A stretch of 64,000 nt of DNA from Romanomermis culicivorax (taxonomy: Eukaryota > Nematoda > Enoplea > Mermithida > Mermithidae), in the NCBI GenBank assembly GCA_963922205.1, contig CAWUHX010000011.1, positions 62,001 to 126,000 on the forward strand. Direction: 5' to 3'. A program made the position numbers and the translations under genes. Shown piece by piece: positions 5,841-64,000 of the stretch. The notes under the pieces are model-generated. The model saw only the letters and a program-made list of their open reading frames with translations. It ran no database searches and was not told where the DNA came from. Every line of letters begins with the position of its first letter. The first letter of the stretch is position 1.

Positions 5841-7433
5841 GAATGCTTTAATCGACACTGGTGGTCAATGTTCCATCCTTCCATCCGGCCTCGTCAAATG
5901 AGCTTTCGATAAACAAATGCTTTGCTTGCCCATCTGTGGAAAGATAAAGGTCGCCGATGGTGCCACCGTCATTGCTCATGGTCCTGTTATCATCATGATG
6001 GGATCCCCATTTGGCGAACATTCGGTCAAATGTGTCGTTCTCAACGATGATGATCAAGATCAATTTATTATCGGCACCAACTTCCTCGCTCATCCCGAAA
6101 TCAATGCCATTCTCAACTTCAAAGAAAAATTTCTGGAAATCCAAAACCTCAAAATGCCACTCAAAGTAGTTGCTTCGATCAAACCACAACCATTTCTATC
6201 AACATCCTGCGACAATATTTTGGAAGAAATCCCTCGGGAGGAACAAGTGAGTATTTATGATAATTTTTCAGAAACTGATGGTCAAGTTGAAGAAATCGAA
6301 GCTGAAAAAACGATACGGCAGGCTCAACCTAGTCCACACCAACCGCCTTCACGGCAGCTGGAGGTCACGGAGTTCGCGGAACCTATCTTCCTTGTCGCTC
6401 AAGCAACCCTCTCCATTTTGCCAAACTGTCAGCAATAGATAACTGGCACCGTTTTTCCCTCCATGCTTGTTTCTATTCCCGATTTGATTGTCCAACCATT
6501 GACCATCAACAACGTCACCACAGAATTCCCAATTGAAACTGTGATTGTCGATGTAACCAATGGAAGCTGCCCACTTTTGTTTGTCAACAATACACCAAAT
6601 TGCATCAAACTTCGACCAAACCAAATCGTCGCCATGGCCAAACACACGTTGGAGTCTGTTGCTGCCCTGATTCAGGATAGCGATATCCGTGTTTCAGTTG
6701 CCGCGTCCGATTGTGATTTGACTGACCATGAACCAGCCATGCTGGACAAATCGCTACCACTTCATACGGACAATCAAAAATTGGAATTCCCCTTGAACAA
6801 GATGACCGAAAAAACCCGCATTACTGCCACTCAAAAACCAAAAGCCCTCAGTATGCTTCGGCAAAACTGAGACGTCTTCAGCCTCCCCGGCGACAAATAT
6901 ACCTTCACCAACAAACTGACTGTCAGTATCGATGCCGGCAGCGCAAAGCCTGTCTCATGCCACTATTACTGCGCCAGGATGGAGCAGAGACCGATTGTAT
7001 GCCGCCATATCCAAGAAATGCTCGACAATGATTTTATCGAACAATCCTGCTCGCCCTGGGCTGCGCCACTGTTCCTGGTAAAGAAAAAAGATGGATCTTG
7101 GCCACCCGTTGTCGACTACCGTGGAATAAGCGACGTCACGCCGAGCGACAAATTCCCAATTCCGCGCATCGATGACTACTTGGACGCCATGGGACAAGCA
7201 AAATTTTTCACCACACTTGATCTCAAAGCTGGGTACTGGCAGGTACCCCTCGACAACAATTCCCCCGATAAAACAACCTTCATCTGCCAAGAAGGTTTGT
7301 TTCGATTCAAAGTTTTGCCGTTCGGTTTGAAGAACACGCCCGCGGAATTTCAACATTTGATGGAACGAATTCTCCGCCCCTATATATGGAAAATTTGCCT
7401 CGTCTACATGGATGATATTATCATTTTCTCGAT
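5780..7433 (+). pseudogene. Ty3/gypsy Pol (protease and RT N-part) of G1, truncated
   Basis: Same frame as gag. The aspartic protease has LIDTGGQCS (active-site DTG at 5853-5861), followed by the retropepsin-like GPVIIMMGSPFGEHSVKCVV region. RT starts near 6890 and shows [61 protein letters not shown] and the catalytic box [10 protein letters not shown] at about 7400-7433. Stops interrupt it at 5899 (TGA), 6436 (TAG) and 6868 (TGA). The frame ends abruptly at 7433, where minus-strand LINE sequence begins; the thumb, RNase H and integrase are missing. Closest relative in the window is G2. Confidence 0.85.
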
Positions 7434-8043
7434 ATTATCAATCTTCCAAAATACAACAAATTTGTCTCATACAAAAGTTGGATTGTATCAGTGTTTGCAG
7501 TCCACCAACTTTTTCAATTTCTCTAGTTCCAATCATATTCCATTTTCCAGTATTTTTGAGTAGCTGGAGCAGCCATTTTGCTTTTAATGATCCTGACATG
7601 ATTTCAATATCTGGCATTTTAACACCACCATTGCAGTAATCTTGAATCATTTCATTCATCATGATTTTTGATGTAGTTATTCCACATAAACTTCAATGAT
7701 ACTGTGGACTAGTTCAGATAATATTAAATAGTTCCAAACAATAACCTTTCTTTAGAATGTGAGATTCCGTGATCTCCAAGTTTCACATTCCATTAGACAT
7801 TTTGTGGGTTTTTCAGCAAAGTTTTTCTTATACATTAGTTTCTTGTCATAAGAAAAATGGGTTCCCAGGATATTTATTGACTTTACTATTTCCCATTCCC
7901 CAAGCTTTTCTTTGACATTTTTGTTCTTACCAAGCCCTAAAACTTGAGAATTTTTCGTATTTATTTTCAGACCTGATGCTTTTGAGAATAGATCAATAAT
8001 TTTTAGTGCTTCACTGAAATCATTTTCATCTTTCATTAGGATT
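7434..8043 (-). pseudogene. LINE L1 fragment, RT C-terminal side
   Basis: Minus-strand translation gives [18 protein letters not shown] and [10 protein letters not shown], matching L2 at 13.3 kb (SLKAKWVERLLNSAGKWN), and further up SGLKINTKNSQVLGLGKN and ILGTHFSYDKKLM. It is the downstream half of a LINE RT copy whose upstream half continues at 8905-9327 beyond a solo LTR. Both ends are truncated: the 3' tail beyond the QSNFC region is absent at the junction with G1, so a simple target-primed insertion into G1 does not explain the junction. Confidence 0.8.
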
Positions 8044-12307: not shown

Positions 12308-15300
12308 TTATGTATTTATCATGTTTTCTAATAGTTGCTTTTCTGCAAAGTGATAAGATCCTATGGTGTTTAAGAAACAGTTTAGATCGTTTTCAAAAAA
12401 ATTGTATGTCAGATTTATATCTAATCTTCTTGTTTTGTATATATGGTATTTAGTAAAGACCATTAAAATGTTAAGGGTATTTTTCATTAGTCTGTCTTTA
12501 CTCGTCATACCTAAAATATAATCCTGCTGGTTTATTCTGAAATTAGGTTCTAAGTGATTCCGAATTCTCCTTTCTAAATCGCTCAAAAGAATTCTGACAG
12601 TAGGACACTCATACAGCATGTGTGAGATGTCATCATTTACGTCACAATGTCTACATAGTTCTGATCAGCATAATTTGTATTTGGCAAGTAGGTACGGCGT
12701 GTCTAATATAGTATGTAATATTTTGTATTGAAACTGTTCGTATTTGTTCCCAATTTCTAAGTCATGTAGTGTTTTCCATGATTCTTCAAATCTTTCGCAT
12801 GAGACCTTAAGTCGGTCTTTCCATATTATTTCTCCTTTTGGGATGCATTGTCTCGCATTTAGTATATGTTTTTTTATGCTATTCAGTTCCTTGGTAGCCC
12901 AAATTTGTGCAGTGAACACACTCTCATTCCGATGTCTTCCATAATTTTTTATTAGTGTTTTCCATGTTTTTGGTATCACATACAATATTTTTGCATAGTC
13001 AAATCAAGTTATTTGACACTCCTCTTTCTTAAGTGCTGCATAGGATCTGATAGACCATGTGTCGTCTAACCAATAATATAAATAGTTGAACTTTGTCTCA
13101 TGAAGAGCACGAAAGAAAACTGATTTTTTATTTACCAGGACGTATCTGTTGTTGTTTATCCTTTGTGTGGTGACTTCAAGTGGCGTAACTACCTCATATA
13201 CATTGCTACTTGGAATATTATGTATTGTTTCTAGGATTTCTTTGTAGAAAGTTGAATGAGTAACATTTAATTTGTCCGTACAAAAATTGGATTGTATTAT
13301 TTCTGAAAGACCACCAATTTTGTCAAGATAGGAGGTTCCAACCTTATTCCATTTACCAGCAGAATTTAATAGTCGTTCAACCCATTTAGCCTTCAGCGAT
13401 ATTATAACTGTCTGAATATCATTCAATACCCCCTTTCTCATGACTTTGAGCCAAGACTACAGATTTTATTTTAGGAGTTGAGCCATTCTACACAAACTTT
13501 CGTTGCATACTTCTGATCTGTTTAATTAAGCTCTTGTCCACTGCTAGATTTATAAAACTATAATTCAATTTTGACATTATTGAGTAATTCCATACCGTAA
13601 CTTTTCCGTAGAATGTTAGCCCCCTGGTCTTCCATATGTTACATTCTTTCTGACATTTTTTGATTTTTTCCGTAAAATTTTTTGTGTTCATGAGATCCTT
13701 GTCATATGAGAAGTGGATTCCCAAAATTTTTATGCTATCTGTTATATTGCATGAACCTAGTCTATTTGTTTTTGACCAGTTTTCTCCCAAACCTATGATT
13801 TGTTTTTTTTTCAGGTTGACGCACAAACCAGATGCTTTTGAGTATTCTTTTATTATTTTCAGTGCATTTTTTAAATCTGGTTTATCCCATACCAGTAAAG
13901 TTGTATCATCAGCATACATGGATACTTTATGAGTCTCGTCTTCTATCTGTAATCCTCTGTATGCTTCTGATGTCCGTAAATTAATAGCCATACATTCCAT
14001 GGCACAGATAAATATATAAGGAGAAATGGGACATCCTTGCTGGACACCCCGCAACAGTTTAAACCTTTTGGTTGTGAAGCCTGAGTTCATAACTACTGCT
14101 TCTGCTCCATTATATAATGTATCTATTCACTTACAGAATTTGTCTCTAAAGTTGAAGTGTTTTAATGTTCTGATCATGAATTTCCTATCAAGTGAGTCAA
14201 AAGCCTTTTCGATGTCCAATGAGACAATGTATCCAGACTTGGTTGATTTTTTATAGTGTTCTATAATGTCCAAAAGATATCTTATGTTTTCACCAATGTA
14301 CCTGTTTGGCATGAAGCCTTTTTGATCCTCATGTATGATTAGGTTGAGCTGACTCTTTAGTCTTGTGGCTAGTACCTTAGCTATTAGTTTATAATCTACA
14401 TTTAATAGTGAAATCAGTCTCCAGTTTGACAGTTCTGATATGTCTTTTCCCGATTTGGGTAGTAACCTAATAATGCTCCTGCGCTTAGAGTCTGACATAA
14501 TACCTTTCTCTAGGTTATAATTTAGGCAGCTAATTAGCCGGTCTTTTATTATGCCCCAATAGTTTTTGTAAAATTCTACCATAAGTCCGTCATCACCTGG
14601 AGATTTCCCATTTTTCATATTTTTCAGTACAGTTGTGTATTCAGATTGAGAAATATTCTGTTCTAAGCATTTATTTTTTTCATCAGTTATTTTTGTGTAT
14701 TCTGTTTCTGCTATTTTCTAAAAGAAATTTTCTTGAAATTTCGTTTCATCTATTTTCTGTCCATACAAGTCACTATAGAATTGTAAGATCTTGTCTAATA
14801 TTTTTGATGGATCCGTGATTTTGTTACCATCTCCATTTTGGAGACTTGTTATACATTTCTATTATAGCTTCTTTTTTCCATGTTTAGAAAATATTTATTT
14901 GGTTTTTCTCCCATGGTATTCCATTTGAGTTTTGTTTTTTCCATTGAGAAAGCTATTTTTTTCTCCATGATTATGTTTAGTTCTGTTAGAATTAAGTTAT
15001 GTTTTAATCTATCTTCATCAGTTTCGAATTCATCGATTTTTCGTTGCAACTCTTGTAGTTCTATTCTGAGATCTTTTTCTCTGTTTTTGGTTGATTTCGC
15101 TATTTTTTTACAGTAAGTAATTGTATCTTTTTTTATAATGTATTTTATATACTCCCATGTTTTTGATGGATCTGAGCCCATGTCCTTGCTCTCTTTTATT
15201 GCTTTGTGAACCATAACTAGGAGTAGTTTACTGTATTTTGTGTCCGCAATTAATGAATTGTTAAAATGCCAAAAACCAGGACCTCTCCTTTTGAAGAGGC

Positions 15301-16017
15301 TTCCAGTTAGTTTAAGAGTTATAGCTTTGTGGTCAGAAGGGAGGCCGCCAACTATGTCACATTTGCTGACCTGACCCATAATTTCCTCAGAGGCCAAAAA
15401 ATAATCAAGTCTGCATTTGACATTTGACTTAGGTTGATACCATGTGTATCTTCTTGTTGTTGGGTTTCCTCTTCTGTACGTGTCAACTAGATCTAAAGCA
15501 GATACATGTTCCAGAAATTTAGTTACTGATTTCTTTTTGTAATTTTTACTGTTTCCTCCAACTTTGTCCAGTCCTTTGTCTATGGTTGGATTGAAATCTC
15601 CACCCATAAGGATAGGTAGTTCACTTTTGTTGAAATTTTTCAATTGGTGGAAGAGATCATCAAAAAAAGATAATTGTTCTTTTTCCTGGACTGGGGTATA
15701 AACATTTACTAATATAAATTTGTGGTCTGATATTTTTACTTCAAGAAATATATACCTACCTTCAGTATCTTTTTTCGTTGATATGGTCTCATATGAGCAG
15801 AGATTATTTAGGAGTATGGCAACGCCTTTTGAATTGCTTCTTCCATGTGAGAAAAAGAGTGTATTTGTGCCACATCCCCACTCAAGTCTAATTCGATTCT
15901 CAGTCCCTTTGACTGTGTGTGTTTCTTGTAAAAAATGATATCCGCATGATTATTCTTTGCATATGCAAAAATACTTTTGCGTTTTGCCTCAGGTATTATA
16001 GATTTACAGTTCAACAA
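12308..16017 (-). pseudogene. LINE L2 ORF2: endonuclease and reverse transcriptase
   Basis: Read right to left. An APE-type endonuclease (about 16017-15300) shows PEAKRKSIF near the N-terminus, GGDFN, RLDYFLAS and the catalytic SDHKAI. After a coiled, lysine-rich linker (15150-14850), RT starts near 14620 with NGKSPGDDG, NWRLISLLNVDYKLIAK, GFMPNRY, SLDIEKAFDSLD, GVQQGCPISPYIF and the box MYADD (about 13900). The C-terminal domain (13440-12308) ends with a Cys/His cluster and MLYECPTVR, as in L1/Tx1-clade LINEs. Frameshifts and stops split it into several frames. A TIR transposon cuts the element at 16018-20133, separating ORF2 from ORF1 (20619-21101). Function in life: nicking target DNA and copying its own RNA there. 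Confidence 0.88.
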
Positions 16018-48044: not shown

Positions 48045-48185
48045 TATTCTACTACACAAAAACAGCTCGACTTAACATATGCTTATTCACTCAAACTATA
48101 AGCCAATGAGCTCGCTTAAAAGCTAAAGGAGAGGCAGAGTCTTAGCTTGCTTTGGTCTCTGAACCTAGTGACCATTCAGTATTCA
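48045..48185 (+). repeat. DIRS left inverted terminal repeat
   Basis: Pairs with 52598-52737. The inner part (from ACTCAAACTATAAGCC to ACCATTCAGTATTCA) is nearly identical between the ends; the outer 37 bases differ at several sites, and each version has its own complement in the internal region. Confidence 0.9.
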
Positions 48186-48243
48186 CTCGAGCTCTTAGCT
48201 TGTGGTCACTTTTTTCTTTGTGCTTCATTGTTTTTTCGGACCT

Positions 48244-49305
48244 ATGTCTATCGTGTCCAAAATTTCTAGAACTTCCTTGAAATTGTTGGACAATTCGATC
48301 AAATTACGCCTTATTGCTGACAATGCCTTGGATACGGAGGCAATATCCGATAATGATAGTGACAGGGCTAAAACCCCTGGAGGCGACTTAGATGACGACG
48401 GCGACAAAAGCGTAGCCAGAGATGGTAGCGCCATCAGCAACAAGAGTTTTTCGGCTACTAGGAAATGCCATCATTCAAGCAGTCATGGCTCGTCAGTCAT
48501 TAACAATACACTATGGGATGATGCTCCAGCATGGAATGACTCACAGGTGGTAATGCCAGAGTTCTTTGATGACCCTTTGGTCAAATGCCAACGTTTATCT
48601 CTTCAGCCTAAAACCAAGCTGATAGCCAATCGGGAACTCTCAACATGCTTCGAGGAAGCCAAGGCATGCAAGAAGCATTATGCCCAGATGGCAATCCCAG
48701 ACTGCAACGTGGCCATTGCTCCAGCTATTGACGATGATTTATGTCTCTTCCTGGAATGGGCCAACAAATGGCCAGTACGTAAAGACGAGCGTCTTTGTAA
48801 TGTCAACCAGGCCTTATTAGAATGTGCCTTTCCTTTGATCGCCATTCTGAAGGAAATTGAGAAAGGTAATGGCGATTTGTCCTATGTCCAGAAGGCAGTA
48901 CGCCACACTTTATGCCACCTTTCTTCGGCCTTACATGACGTTACAGTCAACAGACGGTTCGAAACATTGCGCATTTTGGGAATAAATACCAAAATTTTAC
49001 CTGAAATTTTGTCTGTCAATGTGGCTAGCCACGAGAACGTCCAAAGATGCTTGGACCCATCGACCAAAATTGCTCCTCCACCTCTGTTTAGACATTTGCT
49101 TTGCAGCAAACTCAAAGGGCGAGGCCGTAAAGATAAAACCTTAGGCATGGCTTTACAAACTCTAGGTGGACCATCGAACCATTTGAGTGGACCCCCTAAG
49201 TGGTTCATAACTCCACCTGATGACCAGAAGGACTTTCGTCCCAGATCCGACACATTCAAGTATGATTTGGGAGATTTACAATTTTTTACCTTGTGTCTCC
49301 CCTAA
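48244..49305 (+). CDS. DIRS ORF1, Gag-like protein
   Basis: First ATG in an open frame of about 353 codons, intact to TAA. An acidic, Ser-rich N-terminal part (DNDSDRAKTPGGDLDDDGD) is followed by FDDPLVKCQRLSLQPKTKLI and a helical region ending with a basic KLKGRGRKDK. DIRS ORF1 is thought to act as Gag, binding the element RNA. It overlaps the RT frame at 49221-49305 in a different frame. It is the only undamaged frame of the element. Confidence 0.7.
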   Translation: MSIVSKISRTSLKLLDNSIKLRLIADNALDTEAISDNDSDRAKTPGGDLDDDGDKSVARDGSAISNKSFSATRKCHHSSSHGSSVINNTLWDDAPAWNDSQVVMPEFFDDPLVKCQRLSLQPKTKLIANRELSTCFEEAKACKKHYAQMAIPDCNVAIAPAIDDDLCLFLEWANKWPVRKDERLCNVNQALLECAFPLIAILKEIEKGNGDLSYVQKAVRHTLCHLSSALHDVTVNRRFETLRILGINTKILPEILSVNVASHENVQRCLDPSTKIAPPPLFRHLLCSKLKGRGRKDKTLGMALQTLGGPSNHLSGPPKWFITPPDDQKDFRPRSDTFKYDLGDLQFFTLCLP

Positions 49306-50970
49306 TCATCAAATTAGTGGCAGGTTATGGTTTTTCTTGCATAACTGGAAACTTATTTCTTCTGACCCCTGGGTCCTAGCCATTGCTGCTAGCCTCTCAC
49401 TTGATTTTCATACATGGCCTCCTAGGCAGAAGTTTGGGCCTAAACCATTAAAATTTTTCCCAAAGGAACAAGAACTGATAAATGAAGAAATCAATGGGCT
49501 GGTAGAGAAAGGAGCCATTTCCCCCTTTTCAATCTCTCCAGGTGATACACATGACACTTGGTTTTCTCGGCTCATTTTTGTACACAAGAAGACAGGGGAC
49601 TTGAGGCCAGTCATTAATCTCCGACCCTTGAATCAGTTTCATGAACATTTCAAAATAGAAAACATTTCGATGCTAAAAGATCTGTTGCAACCAGGCGATT
49701 TTTTTGTCAAAATTAATCTAAAAGACGCTTATTTTGCTATTCCTATAGCCGAGAAACACAGAAGGTTCTTATCTTTCGAATGGTCAGGGCAATGTTTTCA
49801 TTTTTAATTGTCTACCATTTGGACTGGCCTCAGCCCCTCCTGTTTTTACTAAAATGCTTAAACTTTTCGCTTTTCTGGTCCGACAGATAGGCCTGTGAAT
49901 CATTATATATCTAGATGATATGCTCTTCATGAACCAAACGGCGATAGGCCTGAAAAATGATATCGCCTTAGTTTCATATATCCTAAAAAATTTGGGGTTC
50001 ATCATAAATGAAGAGAAATCCGAGACAGCGCCTGTCGAGAAAATATCTTTCCTTGGCCTCCTAGTGGACTCAGTTACAATGTTGTTTAGCATTTCTGATG
50101 ACAAAATCATGTCAATCATAAATAAATGCAGAGTTCTCGCTAATGCAAATTTTGTCATTGCCACGGACCTAGCCCACCTGCTGGGAACCATAACTTCAGT
50201 TAGCCAGGCTATTATTCAAGCACATTTATACAGTAGGCATCTTCAAACTTGTCTGATTGAGGCGCTCAAATTTCACCGGTCATACAATGCCCCCATTGTT
50301 CTGTCAGCTGAAGCAAAGAATGAATTAGGCCTATGGTCTAGACAACTGTCATGTTGGAACAGGAAAAATATACTTCCAGAGAAAAGTGCCATCTGTTTTT
50401 TCTGATGCATCTAATACTGGCAGGGGTGTCTACTGTAACAGCAAAAGTTCGTCCGGCTTATGGAATGAAAATAAAAAAGGCCTGCATATTAATTGCAAAG
50501 AACTTTGGCAGCATTTTTTGCCTTAAAGATCTTCACCCCAAACTTGCATGGAGTTTTGATAACATTAATGCTAGATAACTCTACAGCTGTAGCTTACCTG
50601 AACAAGATGGGTGGAACAAAAAACAGCTTTCTTTGTAATCTTTCAATAGAAATTCCGAGTTGGTGCCTGGACCGTAACCTAACCCTCCAGGCGGTACACC
50701 TTCCAGGATGTGAAAATGTGCAAGCTGACCAAGCCTCCAGAGCTAAGGCAGATAGGAGCAACTGGAAACTTAGCACTTCCATTTTTTCACTGATAAATGA
50801 AAAATGGGGCCCACTGAACATTGATCTTTTTGCTGATAGAAAGAAAAAACGTCTAAATAGCTTTGTTTCTTGGAAACCAGATCCAGATGCTTTGTGCATA
50901 GGTGCCTTGAGCTTCTCTTGGCAGAACCGTGGGGCACTTTATGCCTTCCCCCCTTCTGTCTCCTGAGCAA
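49221..50970 (+). pseudogene. DIRS reverse transcriptase and RNase H
   Basis: Begins with GRLWFFLHNWKLISSDPWVL typical of DIRS, then LVEKGAISPF, RLIFVHKKTGDLRPVINLRP, VKINLKDAYFAIPI, CLPFGLASAPPVF and the catalytic box IIYLDDMLF (49900-49925). RNase H follows with FSDASNTGRG (about 50395), LDNSTAVAYL (50570) and WGPLNIDLFADR (50810). Damage: frameshift in a T run at about 49805, TGA at about 49895, and frameshifts at about 50395, 50510 and 50955. No methyltransferase domain is seen. Confidence 0.88.
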
Positions 50971-51168
50971 AGTCGTGAGGAAAGTTATGCAGGAAGAAGT
51001 TGAGATGGTATTGATTGCTCCAATCTGGCCAATGCAAATTTGGTGGCCAACATTGCTGTATTTGGCCACAGAATTTCCATTCTTTCTCTACAACAATTCC
51101 TCTATCTTGACAAATTCAGAGGATAAATTGCATCCACTGATTGAGAATGGCACCCTTCATCTTTCAGG

Positions 51169-52173
51169 GTGGAAAATATCCGGGAAACCTGGCAGAGCCC
51201 AGCCCTTTCGCAGGATGCTGCCGACATCTTGTTACAGTCATGGGCCCTCAGGACCAAAAAGCGTTATAACTTGGCCCTCAGAAAATGGGTTCACTGGTGT
51301 AATGTACAGGAAATTGATCCCATTCAGGCAACTGTAGTCGACTTGGCTAATTATTTAACAGCTCTACATAAAGAAGGCCTAAGATACCAGACCATATCTG
51401 GAGCTATATCAGCTATTTGTGCAGTATTAAAAGAAACTAACCCAAAATTTAAAGATACTCCCTTACTGCCACTCATCTTAAAGGGCATTTTTCGCTCTGA
51501 TCCCCCTGGGCCACGCTATACGTCTGCATGGGACGTCAGCATGATCCTCAATTTCCTCAAGTCTATCGACCTATCTGATAGGGGTTCAGAAACATACAGA
51601 AAATTGTTTACATAAAAAGTTGTTACACTTTTGGCCTTGAGTAGTCCCCAGAGATCTTCAGAGATTTGTAGACTTTCCACTCAATACATGCAGATCTTCT
51701 CACATCGCTTGGTTTTTTGGATTCCAGAAATGCCAAAAACCGGCAATTTCGGGCTACCTCTAGAGGTCGTTCTACATAAGTTTTCTAACCCCTTACTTTG
51801 CCCATATTTGCATATAATGGAACATATTTCCTTTACAAAACCCATCAGGGCTATTAACTCTCACCTTTTTCTCTCATATATAAAACCATTCAACAAGGTC
51901 ACTTCTACCACTATCTCTCGTTGGATCATCAGAGTATTATTTCTGGCTGGTATTGACACCTCTGTGTTCAAAGTGCATTCTGACTATTCTGCGGCATCAT
52001 CTGAAGCATTATCGAGTGGCCTAACAACAAAAGAGATTTTTAAAAGGGCCAACTGGTCACCCAATTCAAAAACCTTCTTTCGCTTTTATAATAAGACAAT
52101 CATTGATAAAAGAGTGACCTTTACGGAGGCAGTTTTTTGTACTAAGGTACAGTATTTGTTCTGTTTGCTTTAA
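51169..52173 (+). pseudogene. DIRS tyrosine recombinase
   Basis: An N-terminal core-binding part (ALRTKKRYNLALRKWVHWC, LANYLTALHKEGLRYQTISG) precedes a catalytic part after a TAA at 51613. SPQRSSEICRLS carries the first Arg. The second Arg of H-x-x-R is missing: VHSDYSAASS. The terminal NSKTFFRFYNKTI supplies the nucleophilic Tyr. It would recombine circular DNA into the target without target duplication. The stop and missing Arg make this copy inactive. Confidence 0.88.
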
Positions 52174-52178
52174 ACAGG

Positions 52179-52286
52179 CATATGTTAAGTCAAGCTGTTT
52201 TGTGTAGTAGAATAGAATATTTTGCTTGGCCTTTAGGCCAATGTGAAATATATATTCTACTAACAAAAACTGCAAAGACTTAACAT
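52179..52286 (+). repeat. DIRS internal complementary region
   Basis: 52179-52214 is the reverse complement of the left outer end (one mismatch, one deletion) and 52253-52286 of the right outer end (a few mismatches), separated by 38 bases. It starts just after the recombinase stop codon. The stretch 52287-52597 is noncoding. Confidence 0.88.
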
Positions 52287-52597
52287 ACCCACCTCCCTGC
52301 CCCTTTGTACTAATCAGGTTCCTTTGTTTAGGAAACCCTGGTTACCACGGAACAAATACCGGGAGCGGGTCGTCATAATGCTTGCGTGTTTGGCCGTGGC
52401 AGGCGCCCCTTTTGAATCAGAAAATTCAATTTTTAGTTACATCTGTTTGTCTGCCATACTGTATTTAAAAAAAATGTTCGACGTTTGACCCCACTTGGGG
52501 GCTTTTTTCCACCTGCTCTGAATTATTTAAGTATAGCGGTCATTTCCTACTTTGCCTTGTTTGGCATTTCTTTTTTTCAATAAATAATGGCTCTCAT

Positions 52598-52737
52598 GAA
52601 TACTGAATGGTCACTAGGTTCAGAGACCAAAGCAAGCTAAGACTCCGCCTCTCCTTTAGCTTTTAAGCGAGCTCATTGGCTTATAGTTTGAGTAAATAAA
52701 GATATGTTAAGTCTTCGCTGTTTTTGTTAGTAGAATA
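52598..52737 (+). repeat. DIRS right inverted terminal repeat
   Basis: Reverse complement of 48045-48185; ends GTTAGTAGAATA at 52737. Confidence 0.9.
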
Positions 52738-54245: not shown

Positions 54246-54262
54246 TCCCTCCCCCCCAAAGG
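54246..54262 (-). promoter_or_regulatory. G3 polypurine tract
   Basis: Minus strand CCTTTGGGGGGGAGGGA directly before the LTR start TGTCAG. This is the primer for plus-strand DNA synthesis in LTR elements and fixes the direction of G3 as minus. Confidence 0.75.
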
Positions 54263-55408: not shown

Positions 55409-58400
55409 TTACTTTTGTCTATGACCACTGTGGTCCCACCCAGGCTGACCAATGCCGTGTTCTCTTTTCAACGGCGATATGTAATCCGGGTTTCCCATTG
55501 ACAGCGGTCCTTGGGGCCGTTGCGTACCCGTTGAAGTCCCCGGAATTTCCATTCTTTCTTCACCTTGTACGTTACGTATCGGCGGAATTATTGTGGGTGG
55601 CGGCATTTGAAGGCCGGGCGGAACCAGGAATTGGTGATAATATTGCGGTTGCCCCGGCTGGAATTGCAAAACCGAAAATTGCGGTATTTGAAACTGCAGT
55701 GGAGGAGGTATCATCATATTGGGCAATACTTGGCCTGAAAAAAAGGGCGATTCATACAATCAACTCCTACCATAGGCAGTCCCGGGTAGTTCGGCCGCAT
55801 ATATGGTAATTGTTGCCGCTGCGCTTGCATCATTGCGTTCGGATCGGCCATCGATACTCCTTGTTGACTCGTTTCATTGGCTCTAGGCCTATCCAGTGAA
55901 GCCGTTCGACTGGAGTAGGACACATCCAATCAATCATCCTGTTGGTAATATCCCGGTGTCCTCTTTCGGCTTCAAGACTTTCGGTTCCCTTTCCGTTCTT
56001 CCGATTCTCTTTTCTCTTTTTCCTTTCATTCGAACTTTTCTTCATAATCTTCAATTTCTTTGCGCCAACTTTCTTCCTCGTTTTCTCTTCGTCTCGTTTC
56101 TCTAGACATCGATTTTTCATGGCGACTTTCCTCTCGGTGCCGACTTTCGTGTTTCCTTTTTCTTTCTTTCTCTGGTGTCGCCGATTCTTCTCTCCTTCAT
56201 TCATCATTATCTCTTCTAGTCCAATTTTTGAATACCTTACCTGCCGCAGGCCTACTGTAGGGGTGCTTGACTCGGTATCCGATTTTCTTTTTTAAACTTT
56301 TTTCGACTTCTAAAAGATCGTTAGCCTTCTTCCTATCGATCACTTCCCAAAAATGTATGCGGGGATCAGTATTATCGGTTTCTTTCTTCCATACTTGAAT
56401 ATTCACATATTTCGGTTCCCGGTCTCTCTTATCCTGCAGGACGGCCTTAGCAATCGTATACGCTAATCCCGCTGCCTTAGACTGGCAAGAGGCGTATAAC
56501 GTATGAAAATTACTACCTGCTCCTTCTTGTCTGGCATTAAATTCGCGGCCTAGTTTCATAGTAACATAAGCGTGAGCCTGATAATAGAATCCCGCGAAAT
56601 TCTGTGGAATTCTGCCCAACCGCGACAATTTCATGAATAAACAGGCGCAGGCCCATACCGCGGCTTCGTATGCTTTCCACGGGGGCTGAGTCCTAGTCCA
56701 TTCAGCCAATTGAAGTTCGAAGATGTTCCACAATTTTTCAGGTAAATTCACCTACAGCACGTGAAACTGCAGTTCGTAGTAGCGTATTGTTTCTATTTCC
56801 ATTCCTGCTTCATCGTAGATATGGTTTATCAAGTCCGTTGTCATAAGAGCTACCTCTTCATCCAAAGCGGGATCCATGTGCGCGAGATATTTCTGAACAC
56901 ACCGATTTGACAGAGATACTCTACCATATTGGAAATCTACGACGTATTTTCCTTCTTTCAAAGCTTTATTCAGGACTTGCCCACGTTTCCCGAGGCCTCG
57001 TCGATACTTGATTTTGTCATTTGGATTTCCTGCCGGTTGTTGGAATTTCCCACTTTTCACTTTGTCCAATTCGGCTTTGTTCTCCTCTTGCGCTATTCGT
57101 TTCTCTTTCTCTTGCCTCTTGTTGTACATTACTCTCACAAATTTTTCGGGGTTGGTTATGTTTTCTACATTCTGCCCACCGGCCTTGGCGTATACCGGCG
57201 GTGCGGGCAAAACATTAGTTTCAGGGGTTTCGTCCTCACTCCCGATTTCGGATACAACTTCCACGTATGGTTCCTCACTTGTTCCTTCTTCGGCGTTAAC
57301 ATTCTCCAATTGCTTTGCCAGTTCGATCCCAGCCTTTCCCTATTTCTCCTTTTCCAACGTTTCTATCTTTTCTTTCATTTCTTTTATTTGCTCGGTCAAC
57401 TTTTCCAAATCGGGTTGTATTTCACTTTCGGGCTCGACTATTTCCATTAGTTTTTTCTCCTCTACGACACCTTTACTGTCAGCAACGGGTGTATTGGCGA
57501 TAGGGGGATCCATGATGATTACCTCTACAGGCTTTTCTTGTTCCATTTCGGTACCTGAAACATTCAAATTATCCATTTTAGAGGGTACAATTTCCGTCTG
57601 TTCCTTCGAAGTTTTTTCTATAGGACCCTGGCTAGCCGGGACCACAACTTCTACTTGAGGAAACAGATCCGAGTCGTCCCACTTAGTCACAGATTTGAGA
57701 GTTGTAGAAGTGCTGGGAACCCATAGGTCCTTAGCCTCGAATATAGAAGTGGAAACATTCCAATAAATGAGATTTTTGCTAGCCGTGTGAACATGCAAAA
57801 AGTGAAACACATTATGAAAGTTATGATTCATAAAATAAATAGAATTTTCCCGTAGATCCGTTTCTATTTCTTCTATGGGCTCCTTTAAGGAACGGGGTAT
57901 CCATTTTATAGGTAGTACGCAGAAAATATTTTGGACTGATTTCTGGGTGTGTACCTTTGGATATCGTTCCATCATTTGTTCCGTTTGCTTGGTCATTCTG
58001 TCCTTCACAAGATCTTGGCCCATCCATTTCATAAATTCAATTCGTTCTTGTTCGTTTCTCCACACGGAGGACCACATACCTGACGTAAATCCTGGGACCC
58101 AAGATCTCCATTCTTGCGCTGAATGAGGCCACAAGAAATAAATGAGGGGATTTACGTTCTTCTCATACAGTTCCTTGACTACAGGGACAATCGACCGATT
58201 GATTTTTGGGTGATAGTAGTCCCTAAGCAGCGATACTTGTTCTCGTATATTATTCGTAAAGTGAATCACTTTGCTAGGCCACTTTCCTTGCTTCATTTCC
58301 ATCTCTCTTGGTTCTATTGGTCGTCCGAATTGCCGCGCAGCTAGTATATCTTCCAGATCCCAATCATTGATGGGCCCCTCTTCCGAGTCTTCCGTATCTT

Positions 58401-59490
58401 TCCTTTTTCATGATGCTTTTACCTTTCTTTCCACCCACGGATACCAACTGCGGGGTACTGGTTGCGGGTCGATGTCGCTATTCGAAAAATGCGGGGGGCA
58501 ATAAAAATTTCTGGTCGCTTGCTCTTCTGATAATTTATAGGTTGCGATTGCTTCTCCACACATCATGAAATATAACACATTGATATTGCCCATCATTTCC
58601 TCTACTCCGTACGCACCTTTCCATTGCGGATCTGTATATTTATCTTCGAACGTTTCTCGAAATCTTCGGGCTAAATCGGCAACCAATTCTGGTTCCATCG
58701 CATCATGCGGATATAACTTGAAATAATTTTGCACATCAGTGGCGAACCCGTAAAGAAGTAGCTCTAAGAAACATAGAAGGGATCCGCGCGTGTCGAGCGT
58801 CGCGTATCGCAAAACTTCTATGTTTAGTTTGTCTGCTTCCATGAGTTGTCGAAATTCTAAGGACCTCAATTGCCCCCACAAAATTTTGAAAGGATCAGCC
58901 CACAGGAATAAAACTTCCGTCATAAGAGCCTTTAAGCTCGGGGCTTCTGGGCTAATTCCGATCATTCTTGTCTTTGATTTATCTTTCATTTCGGCCAATA
59001 CGATTTCCAGATCGTAAACACAACACGATAAGATATAATCGATATTATCACGCTTTTTTCGGGCTAGCTCTCTTTCCTGATCTAAATATCCGAATCTAGT
59101 CAGGACTAGAATGATGTCTTTGCAAATGTGAAAGCCAACGATGATATTCTCCTGGCGAAAAATTGTGCCGTATATCTTATGAAAATGTTCCTTGTCCCAA
59201 AACTTCAAATCTACCATGAAATTCTTCCCACACATAGTCCAAATCGTTAGAAGCCTCAACGCGTCGCTGGGTTTCGAACCCGGTGTTTTCGGTTTCCTTC
59301 CACTTTTGGTATCCAACGTGATAACTATTCGTCCTCTGAATTTGGATTGGTTTATCCCCTTATTGAACGCTTTAATATTTTCGGGCGCGAGGAACATAGG
59401 TTCTTCGATGGCTGTGTGGGGCCCACCAAACAACGACGTGAAATAATTAAAAATGTCTGTCGACCGCACCAATCTTCGCACGTTATAATC
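55409..59490 (-). pseudogene. G3 ORF3: DEDDy exonuclease-like domain plus long C-terminal region
   Basis: One frame from 59490 to about 55740, then one frameshift in a T run (55737-55743) to a stop at 55409; about 1,350 codons. The N-terminal 300 residues fit DEDDy 3'-5' exonucleases of the RNase D/EXD type: motif I VITLDTKS (Lys where Glu is expected), motif II VGFHICKDIILVLTRFGY with Asp, then SLKALMTEV and motif III RYATLDTRGSLLCFLELL. Then come helical domains, a Glu/Lys coiled coil (near 57340), an Arg/Glu/Ser-rich stretch (56200-55930) and a Pro/Gln-rich tail. Seven in-frame stops: TGA at 58408, 56197, 56026, 55972, 55930; TAG at 57340 and 56752. It lies between pol and the 3' LTR, the env position. 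Confidence 0.7.
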
Positions 59491-60190
59491 TTAAAATTTT
59501 CACGCAATTTTTCACCTATTCTTTTTTGATACTAACTTCGAAACAAAAATGACTCAAAAGCTCAAGAATAAATTTGGACATAGGCGAGTTGATCAGTCTC
59601 TCAAATACCCAAAATCCTCGGCATATAAATTGCCGCGCGGTCAATTTAGAGTCCCATTTCGAATAAAAAAAAATTTACCACATATTTTACCCTTTCTACA
59701 ACTTACTACTAATTTGAAAATTGGTATTGTCTTGGCGGTCTTGGGGCTGCCCAAAACTATTATCTACTTCGACGATATTGGACGTAGCCATAACGCGTTC
59801 AAATTTGGACTTCATGAATCCTCCAATCGACGAAAATAATCAATATAGTAATATTTTGCAAATGAAATCTAAAAAACAGCTCCATAACACCTCGACTTTA
59901 TGGGATCTATGACTCGGGGAGGATTTTCTCGGGACTTATAAACATTTTGATTTCTTCACACCGAGCATGTGAAAAAGTATAAATTTGCCCATTAAAATTT
60001 TTCCCGCATCGTAATTTTTTGATAAATGCCTAAAATTGCCATAAAATTGCCAAAAATAAGTCAGAACGATTAAAAATTTGAAGGGGAAAAAAAGGGGAAA
60101 AAATGGGAAAGATATAATACATGGAACATTAAAAAAGGACGCATAAAACAAAATTCGAACACAATGCACAAATAAAACGATAAAAATGAA
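59491..60190 (-). other. G3 spacer between pol and ORF3
   Basis: 700 AT-rich bases with no LTR-like sequence, which supports pol and ORF3 belonging to one element. A 39-codon frame (59815-59696, MKSKFERVMATSNIVEVDNS...) ends in a GTAAGTTG-like donor and could be the first exon of a spliced ORF3 message; this is speculative. Confidence 0.4.
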
Positions 60191-63100
60191 TTATAAGCTA
60201 CAGTAAAAATCGGGTGTCCGCGTAACAAAAGGCATTACGCGATTTATGGAAACTATTTGTACTTGCGAATCTGGTTTCCCAGTGCGGCATATTTTTATGA
60301 CATTTTTGTCTAAATTATGTGTTTCTATCACTTCATAGGGACCGTCATTCATTGTGTCGGCTTTCCCTTTTATGATTCCTTTTTGGTAGAGCACAAGTTC
60401 ACCAATTTGAAATGTCTTTTCGCGAGCCTTCCTGTCATACTGTAATTTTCGTTCGGCCACCGATTTTTTGTGATTTTCATTTATAATTTTGTACGTGTTA
60501 AGGAGATGTTCCGTTAACATGTATTTATAGGTCTCGTAATTATTTTGAACAATTATTGGCCTTGCAATGTCATTATCTATCTGAAATCTTGCCTCGTTGC
60601 CGTACAATAGACTATGAGGGGAGCTTTTCGTGGTTTTGTGGGGCGTAATCCGATAAGCAAATAAAATCTGCTCCAGATAATGAGGCCAATCATCTGGGTC
60701 GGTTATTGCCACTCTCCTAATTTGCTCAATTAGAGTCCTATTGAATCTTTCCACCATACCATTGCATTGCGGGTGGTATGGTGTCGTATTTATCTTCTTT
60801 ATTTTCAGAAGATCGCACACGTCGGGCATTAATTGAGACATATATGCTGAGCCCTGGTCGCTCAGCAAGTGTTTCGGCATCCAGTGGGTATAAATTACTT
60901 TCTCCATAAATGCCTTTACTATGGTATCGGCTTTTTGGTCGGGAATACATTTGGCCTCGACCCATTTCGTAAAATAATCCATGAATACGATAACATATGG
61001 TCTCTTTTCTCGCAGAGGTGAAATACTAACCACATCCATAGCTACTATTTCCCAAGGGTAAGAAACAGGTATGGGGTTAAGTGGTTGAATTGGGTTTGCT
61101 ATGGGGCGACATAATTGGCATACGACACAGGATTTTATCCACTTAATAATGTCGTCTTCCATATTCGACCACCAAAATTTATTCCCAATTGCGGCAATAA
61201 TTCTATCTATTCCTTGATGTCCCATTAAGGTATCGCCGTGGTATTGATGTAAGACAAGGTGCCTAGGCTTGGAGGGAATCACTAATTGATTTCTTCCATG
61301 GATATTTTCTCGGTATAATACTTCATTTTCCAAGTGAAAACTGTTGAAGTATTTTTTAGAACTATTTTCACCAATATTCCAGAAAATATCCACCAATTTC
61401 GAGTTTAATCGCTGTTGTTTCTTGATCAATTCCAGAGAGAATAATTCGGACTCCTTTTTTGCTTCCTCTGGCCTTTGGTCTATTTCTTGTTGAGTTGGTG
61501 GTGGAAGATCAATAAATGTCTCCTGTGTCTCGGGCTCAAGCATTTGTCTTGTCATGGCTCTCGTTACTGCCATGCATTCGGGTTCCATATTCGCATTTTT
61601 GTCCTCAATTTCATCGTAACTTTCTCGCTTTTTGTTTCGAATCTTTTCTTTCTCCTCGGATCTTGATAAAAAATCCGCAAAGGCATTTTCACGTCCGGCT
61701 ACATTTTCGAATGTATAGTTAAACTGTCCAAGATATAAAGCCCATTTCAACAACCTTTGATTTTGTTGTTTTTCTGCGGAGAGCCACGTAAGTGGTTTAT
61801 GGTCTGTTCTGATTGTGACCCTAAACCCCATAATGTAATGTCTGTATTGCTTGAACCCATAGACTACGGCTAAACATTCTCTTTGCATTGTGGAATATCT
61901 TGTTTCGGCGTCGTTTAAAACTCTACTCGAATAGGCTATCATCCAGCGGTCATTTTCCGTTTCTTGGTACAAAATCGCACCTATCGCTGTCCCCGAAGCA
62001 TCAGTTTGAATCACAAATTTCGCCGATCCATCAAATATTGGGTACCGAAGGAAGGGTGCCGTCATTAGGGCGTTTTTTACACCTTTAAAAGCCGTTAACT
62101 GTTCTTCCGAAAGTTCGAACTTCTCCTTCCTATTCTTCTTTACGAGGGCTTCAAATAAAGGCTGGGCGATGAAGGCTAAATTATGTATGAACCGTTTGGA
62201 CCATTGTACTAATCCCAAAAATTTTTGTAGCTGCTTGATGGATTTGGGTACTTCAAAATTTTTAACCGCTTCTATTTTCTCGGGATCAACTGACATTCCA
62301 TTTTTATCCAATATGTGGCCTGAAAATTTTACGCTGGCTGGCATAAAGGAACATTTGTCAGGTTTCAATGTAAGATTTGCGTTTGTCAGACATCGAAAAA
62401 TGGTTTCTATATTTTCTAAATGCTCCTCGACGGTTTTTGAGAAAATTATCACATCATCAATATATACTAAACATATTTTCCATACATATGGGTAGAGAAT
62501 TCATTCCATGAGACGCTGAAATTCTGCGGGAGCATTTTTAAGCCCGAATGGCATTACTTTAAACTGGAAAAGACCGTCTTGGCATATAAATGCTGTCTTT
62601 TCTTTTGATTCTGAATGCATTGGTACCTGCCAGTAACCGGACTTTAAATCTAAAGTCGAAAAATAGCGTGCACCTCCTAACGCATCTAAGTAGTCGTCAA
62701 TTCGTGGTATCGGAAATTTATCGTTTTTCGTTACTTGGTTAATTCCTCTGTAATCAACTACTGGTCTCCACGTGCCATCTTTCTTGCCCACTAAAAATAA
62801 TGGTGCAGCCCAAGGGCTTCTAGAGGGCTCGATGACACCTTTTTCCATCATATCTTTCACATGCTCACGAATAATATCTCTCTGCATGATGGGAGCTCTC
62901 CAATAGTGCTTTTGAATGGGTAATGCGTCTCCTGTATCGATTCTATGCTGTGCCTCGTGGGTCATCGTCAAAGGGTCGTTTTTCATACTAAATGCATGCC
63001 TATGTTTAAGTAGGACATTCATAAGTTGCTGTTGCCCTTCTCGATCAACACTCGATTCTTTTACTAGTTGCGTTACGATTTTGATGAATTCTGGTTCGCT

Positions 63101-64000
63101 CTGCTGTTGGATTTGAGGTTCTGTCTGAAGTTGATGTATCTTTTCGTCAAATTCTGGCCCCACGAATTTAGTTTTTGATTTTGCTATCAACTCATTGCTA
63201 CGCAATTTTATCCCTTTGTTCGTTTCATTTATAAGTAAAATTCGGAAATTATTATTTCTAGCATCCACAATTGAGGCATCGACGTCGAATAAAGTATCCT
63301 TCCCCGTTTCTTCTACCACTATAGGACCCTTTGTCCAATCTTTCTGTGGCCAAACCACAGCTTGCACAAAAGAAGTGGTATTGGGGGGAATATATGTCCC
63401 ATTTTTTGTCCAAATAAAAGTTTCTTCATTCATTTCCGTAATTGGCATTACTTGTTCTTGATCATCGTCACTTTCTAATTCAGGCAGGTCTTCTTCCTTA
63501 ATTTCCTCCTTTATAGGTACATAATCCAAAACCATCAAATTTGTAGGAATTGGCAACCGGGACGGTATTTGCGCATCGTCGAATAATGTTTCACTAATTA
63601 TCTGTCTTTCTACATTTGCTAGACGTATGTGGCCTTTTCGAAAATCAATAGACGCCTGTATACTAGGATGGGTTAGAAAATCTAGACCCAATATAATACC
63701 TTCGTTCAGGTTATCTAGCAATGTGAATCTAGCGAGAAAATTTCCAAAACCGGTTCCAACGTATATAAATGTAGGACCATATGTTGTTACGCGTTTTCCA
63801 ACCGCTGTTACTACTGAATTTAAGATAGGAAATTTTGTCTTAAGTGTATTCAGTAGTCTCGATGCTGTATCTGTCCTCATAAAGCTAGATTGTGCTCCCG
63901 TATCGATTAGGGCTTTGAATTCTTCTCCACGTATTTTAACGGGTATTAATAATGGTTGACATTTGCAAAAATTTTCCAAAAATAGATGTTCGTTATCATT
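60191..64000 (-). pseudogene. Ty3/gypsy Pol of G3 (protease, RT, RNase H, integrase), near-intact
   Basis: One frame, open at the window edge, so Gag lies outside. Protease [13 protein letters not shown] (63900). [62 protein letters not shown]; then a TGA (62501-62503) just before the box VYIDDVIIFS. RNase H: IQTDASGTAIGAILYQ, RECLAVVYG, RTDHKPLTWL. Integrase: an H-H-C-C finger ending CVVCQ, catalytic VAMDVVS, LLSDQGSAY and GMVERFNRTL (DDE), and a GPYEV GPY/F module. At the TGA site G1 has CGA, so one substitution separates this copy from an intact frame. Of the three gypsy copies it is the least decayed. Confidence 0.93.

What the first reader, a model, noticed from the sequence alone, without database searches (positions are those of the whole stretch)
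55409..59490. A DEDDy exonuclease-like ORF3 sits in the env position of gypsy element G3
Seen: motif I LDTKS, motif II VGFHICKDI, motif III RYATLD with SLKALM before it, in the spacing of RNase D/EXD-type exonucleases; the frame lies downstream of pol, on the same strand, and is followed by a polypurine tract and LTR, with no LTR between pol and it. Known: DEDDy exonuclease ORF3s have, as I recall, been reported in LTR retrotransposons of bdelloid rotifers. Inference: this animal lineage carries its own or a shared version, here fused to a roughly 1,000-residue C-terminal region that I cannot assign. An exonuclease could trim cDNA or RNA ends during replication or oppose host defence.
Basis: partly seen in the sequence, partly recalled or inferred. 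Interest (0 to 1): 0.88.

Follow-up and report, generated by a model that had tools for sequence, protein, structure and literature searches.

The report
Exonuclease gene carried by nematode retrotransposon
A jumping gene in a mosquito-killing nematode carries, where related elements may carry an envelope gene, a large gene that begins with a likely nucleic-acid-trimming enzyme; a similar arrangement was known from rotifers, and here it occurs in many copies, some of them recent.

Summary
The genome is Romanomermis culicivorax. The window holds an old, broken copy of a ~13.65-kb Ty3/gypsy element: PR-RT-RNaseH-IN, 0.7-kb gap, ORF3, polypurine tract, 3' LTR. In 20 of 20 further copies fetched (picked for open frames), pol ends about 0.7 kb before ORF3 with no LTR start between; 9 of 10 of these checked have LTR pairs 97.7-100% identical. 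ORF3 is open for 1361-1365 codons in 15 of 20; dN/dS of its exonuclease part is about 0.06. A coding first exon and splice sites shared by 21 of 21 copies imply a 217-nt intron. Direct Pfam and PDB searches found no exonuclease match and two structure predictions failed; the identity rests on homology (blastp about 1e-18) to a sister-element ORF that Pfam recognises as PF01612. D-E-D-Y-D is complete in 23 of 25 copies; the window copy has K for the motif I glutamate. A second DEDDy ORF family also lies behind pol (4 of 4 loci read). DEDDy ORF3s were known in bdelloid rotifers; the nematode host, the fusion to ~1,100 unassignable residues and the intron are new in what I could search. Function is inferred.

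The parts
60191..64000 (-). pol of the element (aspartic protease, RT, RNase H, integrase with GPY module), running off the window edge; one in-frame TGA at 62501-62503 inside RT
   Evidence: Pfam PF13975, PF00078, PF17917, PF17921, PF00665; ORF tables; stop; GPY motif seen in the translation
59707..59791 (-). ORF3 exon 1, 85 nt, MATSNIVEVDNSFGQPQDRQDNTNFQIS plus one base
   Evidence: same length and start codon in 21 of 21 copies; coordinates; several UniRef R. culicivorax gene models begin with such a peptide joined to exon 2
59490..59706 (-). inferred intron, 217 nt, GTAAGT donor and TTTTAAG acceptor, with an in-frame TAA at its 3' end
   Evidence: splice sites identical in 21 of 21 copies, indels inside the intron, none in exon 1; no RNA evidence
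58411..59489 (-). ORF3 exon 2, first part: DEDDy exonuclease domain (about residues 30-262 of the piece) and start of the C-terminal region; motif I D-x-K (E lost), motif II D intact, motif III Y-x-x-x-D intact
55409..58410 (-). ORF3 C-terminal region (about 1,100 residues after the exonuclease domain in open copies): acidic linker, a coiled-coil-like stretch (by eye), a constrained second region, K/R/E-rich stretch, P/Q-rich tail; interrupted here by stops at 58408, 57340, 56752 and a frame change after about 56200
54246..54257 (-). polypurine tract GGGGGGGAGGGA
   Evidence: GGG[AG]TGTCAGAGG found in 19 of 20 fetched copies, missing in L011
53398..54245 (-). 3' LTR, TGTCAG...TACGACA, 848 bp; the 5' LTR is outside the window at C11:128260-129054 (91% identical)
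   Evidence: ends supported by 4-bp target duplications in other copies

Best explanation
It is the ORF3 of a Ty3/gypsy LTR retrotransposon family of the mermithid nematode Romanomermis culicivorax. Shown: ORF3 lies between pol and the 3' LTR, is maintained by strong purifying selection, and begins with a domain homologous to DEDDy 3'-5' exonucleases (PF01612) with all five catalytic residues in 23 of 25 copies read. Inferred: ORF3 is translated from an RNA in which a 217-nt intron is removed, so unspliced genomic RNA cannot make it from the first ATG; this separates genome from ORF3 messenger much as retroviruses do for env. Inferred: the protein is a soluble nucleic-acid enzyme, not an envelope. 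Its N-terminal domain trims 3' ends of the element's RNA or single-stranded cDNA, while the long C-terminal part holds it to an RNP or particle or takes it to the nucleus. The window copy itself is a dead relic. The confidence given is for identity, anatomy and an active soluble enzyme; the choice of substrate alone I would put at about 0.4.
For: Position: LTR pairs flank the exonuclease match at the expected spacing in C11 (the window element), C238, C235, C3 and C66. Of ten of the 20 fetched copies whose ends I read, nine have both LTRs, 97.7-100% identical, and the eight that are not tandem show 4-bp target duplications. Pol end about 0.7 kb upstream in 20 of 20 fetched copies plus the window. 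Identity: blastp of four window-family sequences to L157: 27-29% identity, E about 1e-15 to 1e-18; our profile scores L157 and L161 at 52 and 56 bits against 11.1 for the best of 2000 shuffles of L157. L157 matches PF01612 at E 4.3e-8, 33.6 bits over a cut-off of 23.6, and has a gypsy integrase 46.6% identical to the window's just upstream. D-E-D-Y-D complete in 23 of 25 copies of three subfamilies, window included. UniRef names two fragments (P0003, P0006) '3'-5' exonuclease domain-containing protein'. Selection: dN/dS 0.062 (exonuclease piece), 0.106, 0.043, 0.098 for four successive parts, L013 against 13 copies; nine further pairs gave 0.037-0.126 for the exonuclease piece. Intron. No hydrophobic stretch of transmembrane strength in the two copies scanned (best 19-residue mean 1.35).
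Against: No sequence of the window's own family that I tested reaches PF01612, a PDB chain, PHROGs or NCBIfam (Pfam; PDB; PHROGs, window only; NCBIfam, L013 only). Direct profile comparison with RNase D or with the second DEDDy family is not significant (hhalign probability about 1% or less), although the RNase D alignment puts motifs I and II in register. In hmmsearch with RNase D or second-family profiles, the best shuffles outscored the real sequences. Both structure predictions failed. The first 85 codons of exon 2, which hold motif I, are less constrained (pN/pS 0.18) than codons 86-255 (0.047). No transcript was seen, so intron and expression are inferred. No activity is shown, and the DEDD relatives Maelstrom and EXD1 have lost catalysis (passage of PMC5408684). 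The copies for the selection test were picked for open frames.
Confidence: 0.7

Rival explanations
1. Counter-defence (same enzyme, other substrate): the exonuclease degrades or trims host small RNAs or the dsRNA from which they are made, so protecting the element. R. culicivorax is reported to lack PIWI and 22G-RNAs; clade I nematodes keep an RRF-3-type RNA polymerase.
For: PMC4323106 (passages seen) reports no piRNAs, no PRG-1/Piwi and no 5'-triphosphate small RNAs in R. culicivorax, and RRF-3-type polymerase in clade I. PMC5408684 names a silencing role like that of mut-7 as a possibility, while doubting it (passage). The family is numerous: 113 places scored, a lower bound.
Against: No link to small RNAs was tested. 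The K/R/E-rich stretch fits many RNA-binding roles. Strong constraint does not tell the substrate.
Confidence: 0.25
2. The domain is no longer an enzyme but an RNA-binding pseudo-exonuclease, as in Maelstrom or EXD1, and works as an RNP-assembly or export factor.
For: The window copy and L011 carry K for the motif I glutamate. The precedents are named in PMC5408684 (passage). Codons 1-85 are less constrained than the rest of the domain.
Against: All five catalytic residues are kept in 23 of 25 copies across three subfamilies and in L157 of the sister family; dN/dS of the piece is about 0.06.
Confidence: 0.15
3. ORF3 is an env-like gene and the exonuclease resemblance is accidental.
For: It stands in the env position and is preceded by a splice acceptor, as env genes are. 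No direct family match.
Against: No transmembrane-strength segment, homologous to a PF01612 protein, complete D-E-D-Y-D in 23 of 25 copies.
Confidence: 0.03
4. Artefact: a host exonuclease gene that happens to lie next to a relic, or an assembly join.
For: The window copy alone, broken and with one LTR in view, would allow it.
Against: LTR-pol end-ORF3-LTR recurs in copies on different contigs, with target duplications.
Confidence: 0.01

Closest known systems
DEDDy-type ORF3 of bdelloid rotifer LTR retrotransposons (Juno, Vesta) and Athena elements; Rodriguez, Kenefick and Arkhipova 2017, PMC5408684 (abstract and passages seen)
   Same: A DEDDy exonuclease homologue as extra ORF downstream of pol in retrovirus-like LTR elements; more than one lineage in one genome carries it; no transmembrane domain.
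   Different: Host is a nematode. Exonuclease domain at the N-terminus of a ~1,390-residue protein whose C-terminal ~1,100 residues have no relatives that I could find outside the species. Intron inferred at its start. Motif set is D-E-D-Y-D (the paper states that DEDD is changed to DEED in rotifers). At least 28 long open frames here among 113 scored places, against 1-2 full-length copies per family on average in A. vaga according to the paper. Common descent with rotifer ORF3s was not testable.
Pfam PF01612 DNA_pol_A_exo1 (RNase D, WRN exonuclease, MUT-7, Rrp6)
   Same: Order and identity of motifs I, II and III; significant homology through the sister element's ORF.
   Different: The window-family sequences tested are below detection by the Pfam model.
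Ty3/gypsy elements with env (errantiviruses and similar; recalled, no call)
   Same: Position of the extra ORF after pol, a splice acceptor before it, LTR and polypurine tract structure.
   Different: No membrane segment; an enzyme homologue instead of a fusion protein.

Membership tests
DEDDy 3'-5' exonuclease superfamily | D-x-E, D and Y-x-x-x-D in order and spacing | tested here: met
   23 of 25 family copies; the window copy and L011 have D-x-K
DEDDy 3'-5' exonuclease superfamily | statistical homology to a recognised member | tested here: met
   blastp and profile to L157; L157 to PF01612 E 4.3e-8
DEDDy 3'-5' exonuclease superfamily | direct match of the family itself to PF01612 above cut-off (helpful, not defining) | tested here: not met
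   window, L009, L013, L017 and ten UniRef fragments: no match; none of the 91 PF01612 matches in the genome lies at one of the 113 places (coordinates compared by eye)
DEDDy 3'-5' exonuclease superfamily | RNase H-like exonuclease fold | tested here: inconclusive
   AlphaFold2 pLDDT 52.8 and 44.7
DEDDy 3'-5' exonuclease superfamily | metal-dependent 3'-5' hydrolysis | not testable with these tools
   -
Ty3/gypsy LTR retrotransposon | pol order PR-RT-RNaseH-IN | tested here: met
Ty3/gypsy LTR retrotransposon | paired LTRs TG...CA, polypurine tract, 4-5 bp target duplication | tested here: met
   9 of 10 copies with LTR pairs: 8 with a 4-bp duplication, one tandem; the tenth without 5' LTR at the expected place
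Ty3/gypsy LTR retrotransposon | gag upstream of pol | not tested
   lies outside the window; not examined as DNA
bdelloid-type DEDDy ORF3 | DEDDy ORF downstream of pol inside the LTRs | tested here: met
bdelloid-type DEDDy ORF3 | common ancestry with the rotifer ORFs | not testable with these tools
   no rotifer sequence was held; the homologue searches returned only R. culicivorax
env ORF3 | transmembrane segment | tested here: not met
   best 19-residue hydropathy mean 1.35 in the two copies scanned, exon 1 not included

The most novel reading that the evidence does not exclude
Retroelements of a nematode without piRNAs took up DEDDy exonucleases at least twice, separately from rotifers, and one lineage built the enzyme into a ~1,390-residue spliced ORF3 protein that opposes RNA silencing or edits cDNA ends. 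That would be a recurrent, unrecognised class of accessory enzyme in animal LTR elements.
Probability: 0.3. Interest if true: 0.8.

Novelty: new variant of a known kind. Interest (0 to 1): 0.62.

Why it matters
Exonuclease ORF3s in LTR elements were, in the papers that my searches showed, described only in bdelloid rotifers. Their role there is open: the authors report no clear link between ORF3s and copy number, and no departure from neutrality within the genome for the env-like and GDSL ORF3s that they resequenced (PMC5408684, passages). Here the ORF is under strong constraint in a numerous, recently active family, in a worm reported to lack piRNAs. That makes the question 'what does a retrotransposon gain from an exonuclease' open to test with RNA, small-RNA and enzyme assays.

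Tried and rejected
Direct homology route: PDB, Pfam, PHROGs, NCBIfam, hhalign and hmmsearch against 80 bacterial RNase D and against the second DEDDy family were negative for the window-family sequences tested. The sister family found among weaker PF01612 matches settled it. Viral contigs: 49 stretches matched a pattern, none a relative. Full-length ORF3 search: none at E 1 or better among 7984 scored candidates. Env reading rejected. A similarity of the C-terminal region to the gag-like start of P0014 was sought and not found (blastp E 0.24). A test for intronless copies by a splice-junction pattern did not complete. An integrase search for the second family did not complete either; three further loci were read instead. 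Copy number of the sister family was not obtained. A rotifer phylogeny was not possible. In one search three of six pol comparisons, all with L009, gave dN/dS 0.26-0.36; the other three gave 0.04-0.06. I take L009's pol end to be disturbed but did not examine it. One search stopped with an error after printing its codon windows; its second half was rerun. An earlier count said 16 of 20 copies with the long frame; the table gives 15.
Full report
Host and genome. All 17 relatives of the exonuclease piece found in the protein database at E 0.001 are R. culicivorax UniRef entries, as are all 37 at E 1 of a profile search that scored the 7996 candidates sharing most words. The window's assembly has 359,112,060 bases in 595 contigs. 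That agrees with the v2 assembly of Romanomermis culicivorax, 359.1 Mb and 595 scaffolds, in PMC10879605 (passages seen). It is a mermithid nematode, an obligate parasite of mosquito larvae.

The element. On the minus strand the window shows pol with protease, RT, RNase H and integrase, ending at 60191. After about 0.7 kb comes exon 2 of ORF3 (from 59489), with exon 1 (59791-59707) in the gap; ORF3 ends in open copies at the place that corresponds to window 55409. Then follow 1.15 kb without an obvious shared frame, a polypurine tract at 54257-54246 and the 3' LTR from 54245 to 53398. The LTR search of the genome scored 40 matches. They include the 5' LTR of this very element outside the window (C11:128260-129054), so the element spans about 13.65 kb, and LTR pairs around the exonuclease matches in C238, C235, C3 and C66; C138 has a pair 27 kb apart. 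The two LTRs of the window element are 91% identical, so this copy is old. It carries an in-frame stop in pol (62501-62503), three stops in ORF3 and a frame change.

Copies. A search with the exonuclease piece scored 113 places, a lower bound; by my count of that table 28 of 113 have an open frame of at least 1359 codons and no stop in the match. I fetched 20 of the 113, picked for long open frames: 15 of 20 are open for 1361 or 1365 codons, the other five for 1129 to 1187. A query from another subfamily (P0002) brought up further copies with 1355-1359-codon frames. The pol end lies about 0.7 kb upstream in 20 of 20: 19 by a pattern, L013 by reading. The LTR start motif does not occur between pol and ORF3 in any of the 20; one match in L025 lies upstream of the pol end. 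In L011 the motif was not found at the 3' end either, so there the spacing alone speaks. Of ten of these copies whose ends I read, nine have LTR pairs identical at 97.7-100%. Eight of the nine show a 4-bp target duplication; the ninth, C209, is a tandem pair sharing an LTR. For the tenth, C94, no 5' LTR was found at the expected place. The family has therefore moved recently.

The intron. ORF3 exon 2 has an in-frame TAA directly at its start and no methionine in its first residues. Upstream, 21 of 21 copies carry an 85-nt stretch beginning ATG and coding a 28-residue peptide, without indels, followed by GTAAGT; the acceptor TTTTAAG is likewise present in all 21. The stretch between differs by indels. 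Several UniRef gene models of the species join the same two pieces. This is good evidence for a spliced ORF3 but not RNA evidence.

Is it an exonuclease? Directly, the family sequences tested are invisible to Pfam, PDB, PHROGs and NCBIfam. Profile comparison with RNase D is not significant, though it sets ALDTES against ALDTEF and REDI..L..FG against SEDL..L..FG; with hmmsearch the best shuffles even outscored the real sequences. Two structure predictions failed. The link came from the weaker end of a PF01612 search of the genome, which gave 91 matches, none at one of the 113 places. One group (C130, C407, C207; L157, L160, L161; 27.6-32.1 bits, over the cut-off) aligns with the window family over the domain. 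Identity to L157 and L161 is 27-29%, with blastp E as low as 1e-18 to 1e-19 in a three-sequence comparison. Profile scores were 52 and 56 bits for L157 and L161 and 32.6 for the shorter L160, against 11.1 for the best of 2000 shuffles. L157 alone matches PF01612 at 4.3e-8. L157 stands about 240 nt behind a gypsy integrase 46.6% identical to the window's. So the DEDDy ORF was probably already present in the common ancestor of two gypsy families (inference). The catalytic set D-E-D-Y-D is whole in 23 of 25 window-family copies; the window copy and L011 have D-K-D-Y-D. The second E to K change in the window, next to the motif II aspartate, is not catalytic by this alignment.

A second DEDDy family. 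The strongest PF01612 matches belong to another multicopy ORF of about 608 residues (Pfam 1.3e-10; best PDB matches WRN and MUT-7 exonucleases). In C69 a frame with gypsy RNase H (over the cut-off) and an integrase zinc-binding match (24.9 bits, just under its cut-off of 25.5) lies directly upstream. In three further loci the same integrase region lies at the same place: 4 of 4 looked at. In a tree of 25 rows this family is separated from the window and sister families (support 94/91), but the tree tool warns of long branches and only bacterial RNase D was available as outside group. Two captures are likely, not proven.

The rest of ORF3. After the exonuclease domain come about 1,100 residues: a constrained region, a relaxed acidic linker (codons 596-680, pN/pS 0.36), a coiled-coil-like stretch (by eye), a second strongly constrained region (codons 851-935, 0.026), a K/R/E-rich stretch and a P/Q-rich tail. 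No family, PDB chain or long homologue was found. The length limits of the homologue search mean that shorter relatives of this part alone would have been missed. Selection: dN/dS 0.062, 0.106, 0.043 and 0.098 over four successive parts; within the exonuclease piece, codons 1-85 stand at pN/pS 0.18 and codons 86-255 at 0.047. That is strong evidence that the whole protein is used by the element.

What it does. The lack of a membrane segment and the enzyme homology argue against an envelope. I think trimming of 3' ends of the element's own RNA or cDNA is most likely. Attack on silencing RNAs is the main rival, given that this worm is reported to lack piRNAs and 5'-triphosphate small RNAs (PMC4323106, passages seen). 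Neither was tested.

What is known. PMC5408684 (abstract and passages seen) reports DEDDy ORF3s in Juno and Vesta LTR elements and in Athena elements of bdelloid rotifers. PMC5718144 (passages seen) and PMC6338049 (passages seen) cite exonucleases as accessory parts of LTR elements. My paper searches (listings and abstract starts seen) showed no title or abstract start reporting such an ORF in nematodes. The library holds only open-licence papers, so this is no proof of absence.

Noticed in passing
G000 C69:277521-279347 and similar loci (L051-L070): A second, separate gypsy lineage with a ~608-residue ORF that Pfam recognises as PF01612, behind pol in 4 of 4 loci read.
   Followed up: partly
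G000 C130:67800-70260 (L166, L157): Sister gypsy family with a PF01612-recognised DEDDy ORF behind its integrase; copy number not obtained.
   Followed up: partly
window 48069-52713: A stretch with 129-nt inverted repeats (93%) enclosing sub-threshold RT and tyrosine-recombinase matches; might be a DIRS/PAT-like retroelement.
   Followed up: no
window 13004-15949 (-): Remnant of a non-LTR retrotransposon: endonuclease/exonuclease/phosphatase domain followed by RT.
   Followed up: no
window 6871-7563 (+): Another RT fragment (PF00078); three open frames before it (from 2990) have no Pfam match at 0.01.
   Followed up: no
window 55408-54258 (-): About 1.15 kb between the ORF3 end and the polypurine tract, mostly similar among nine aligned sequences (majority-base fraction 0.66-0.95 per 50 columns) but without an obvious shared frame.
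   Followed up: partly
G000 C209:298957-313357 and on: Two elements in tandem that appear to share an LTR (exonuclease matches 12.8 kb apart).
   Followed up: no
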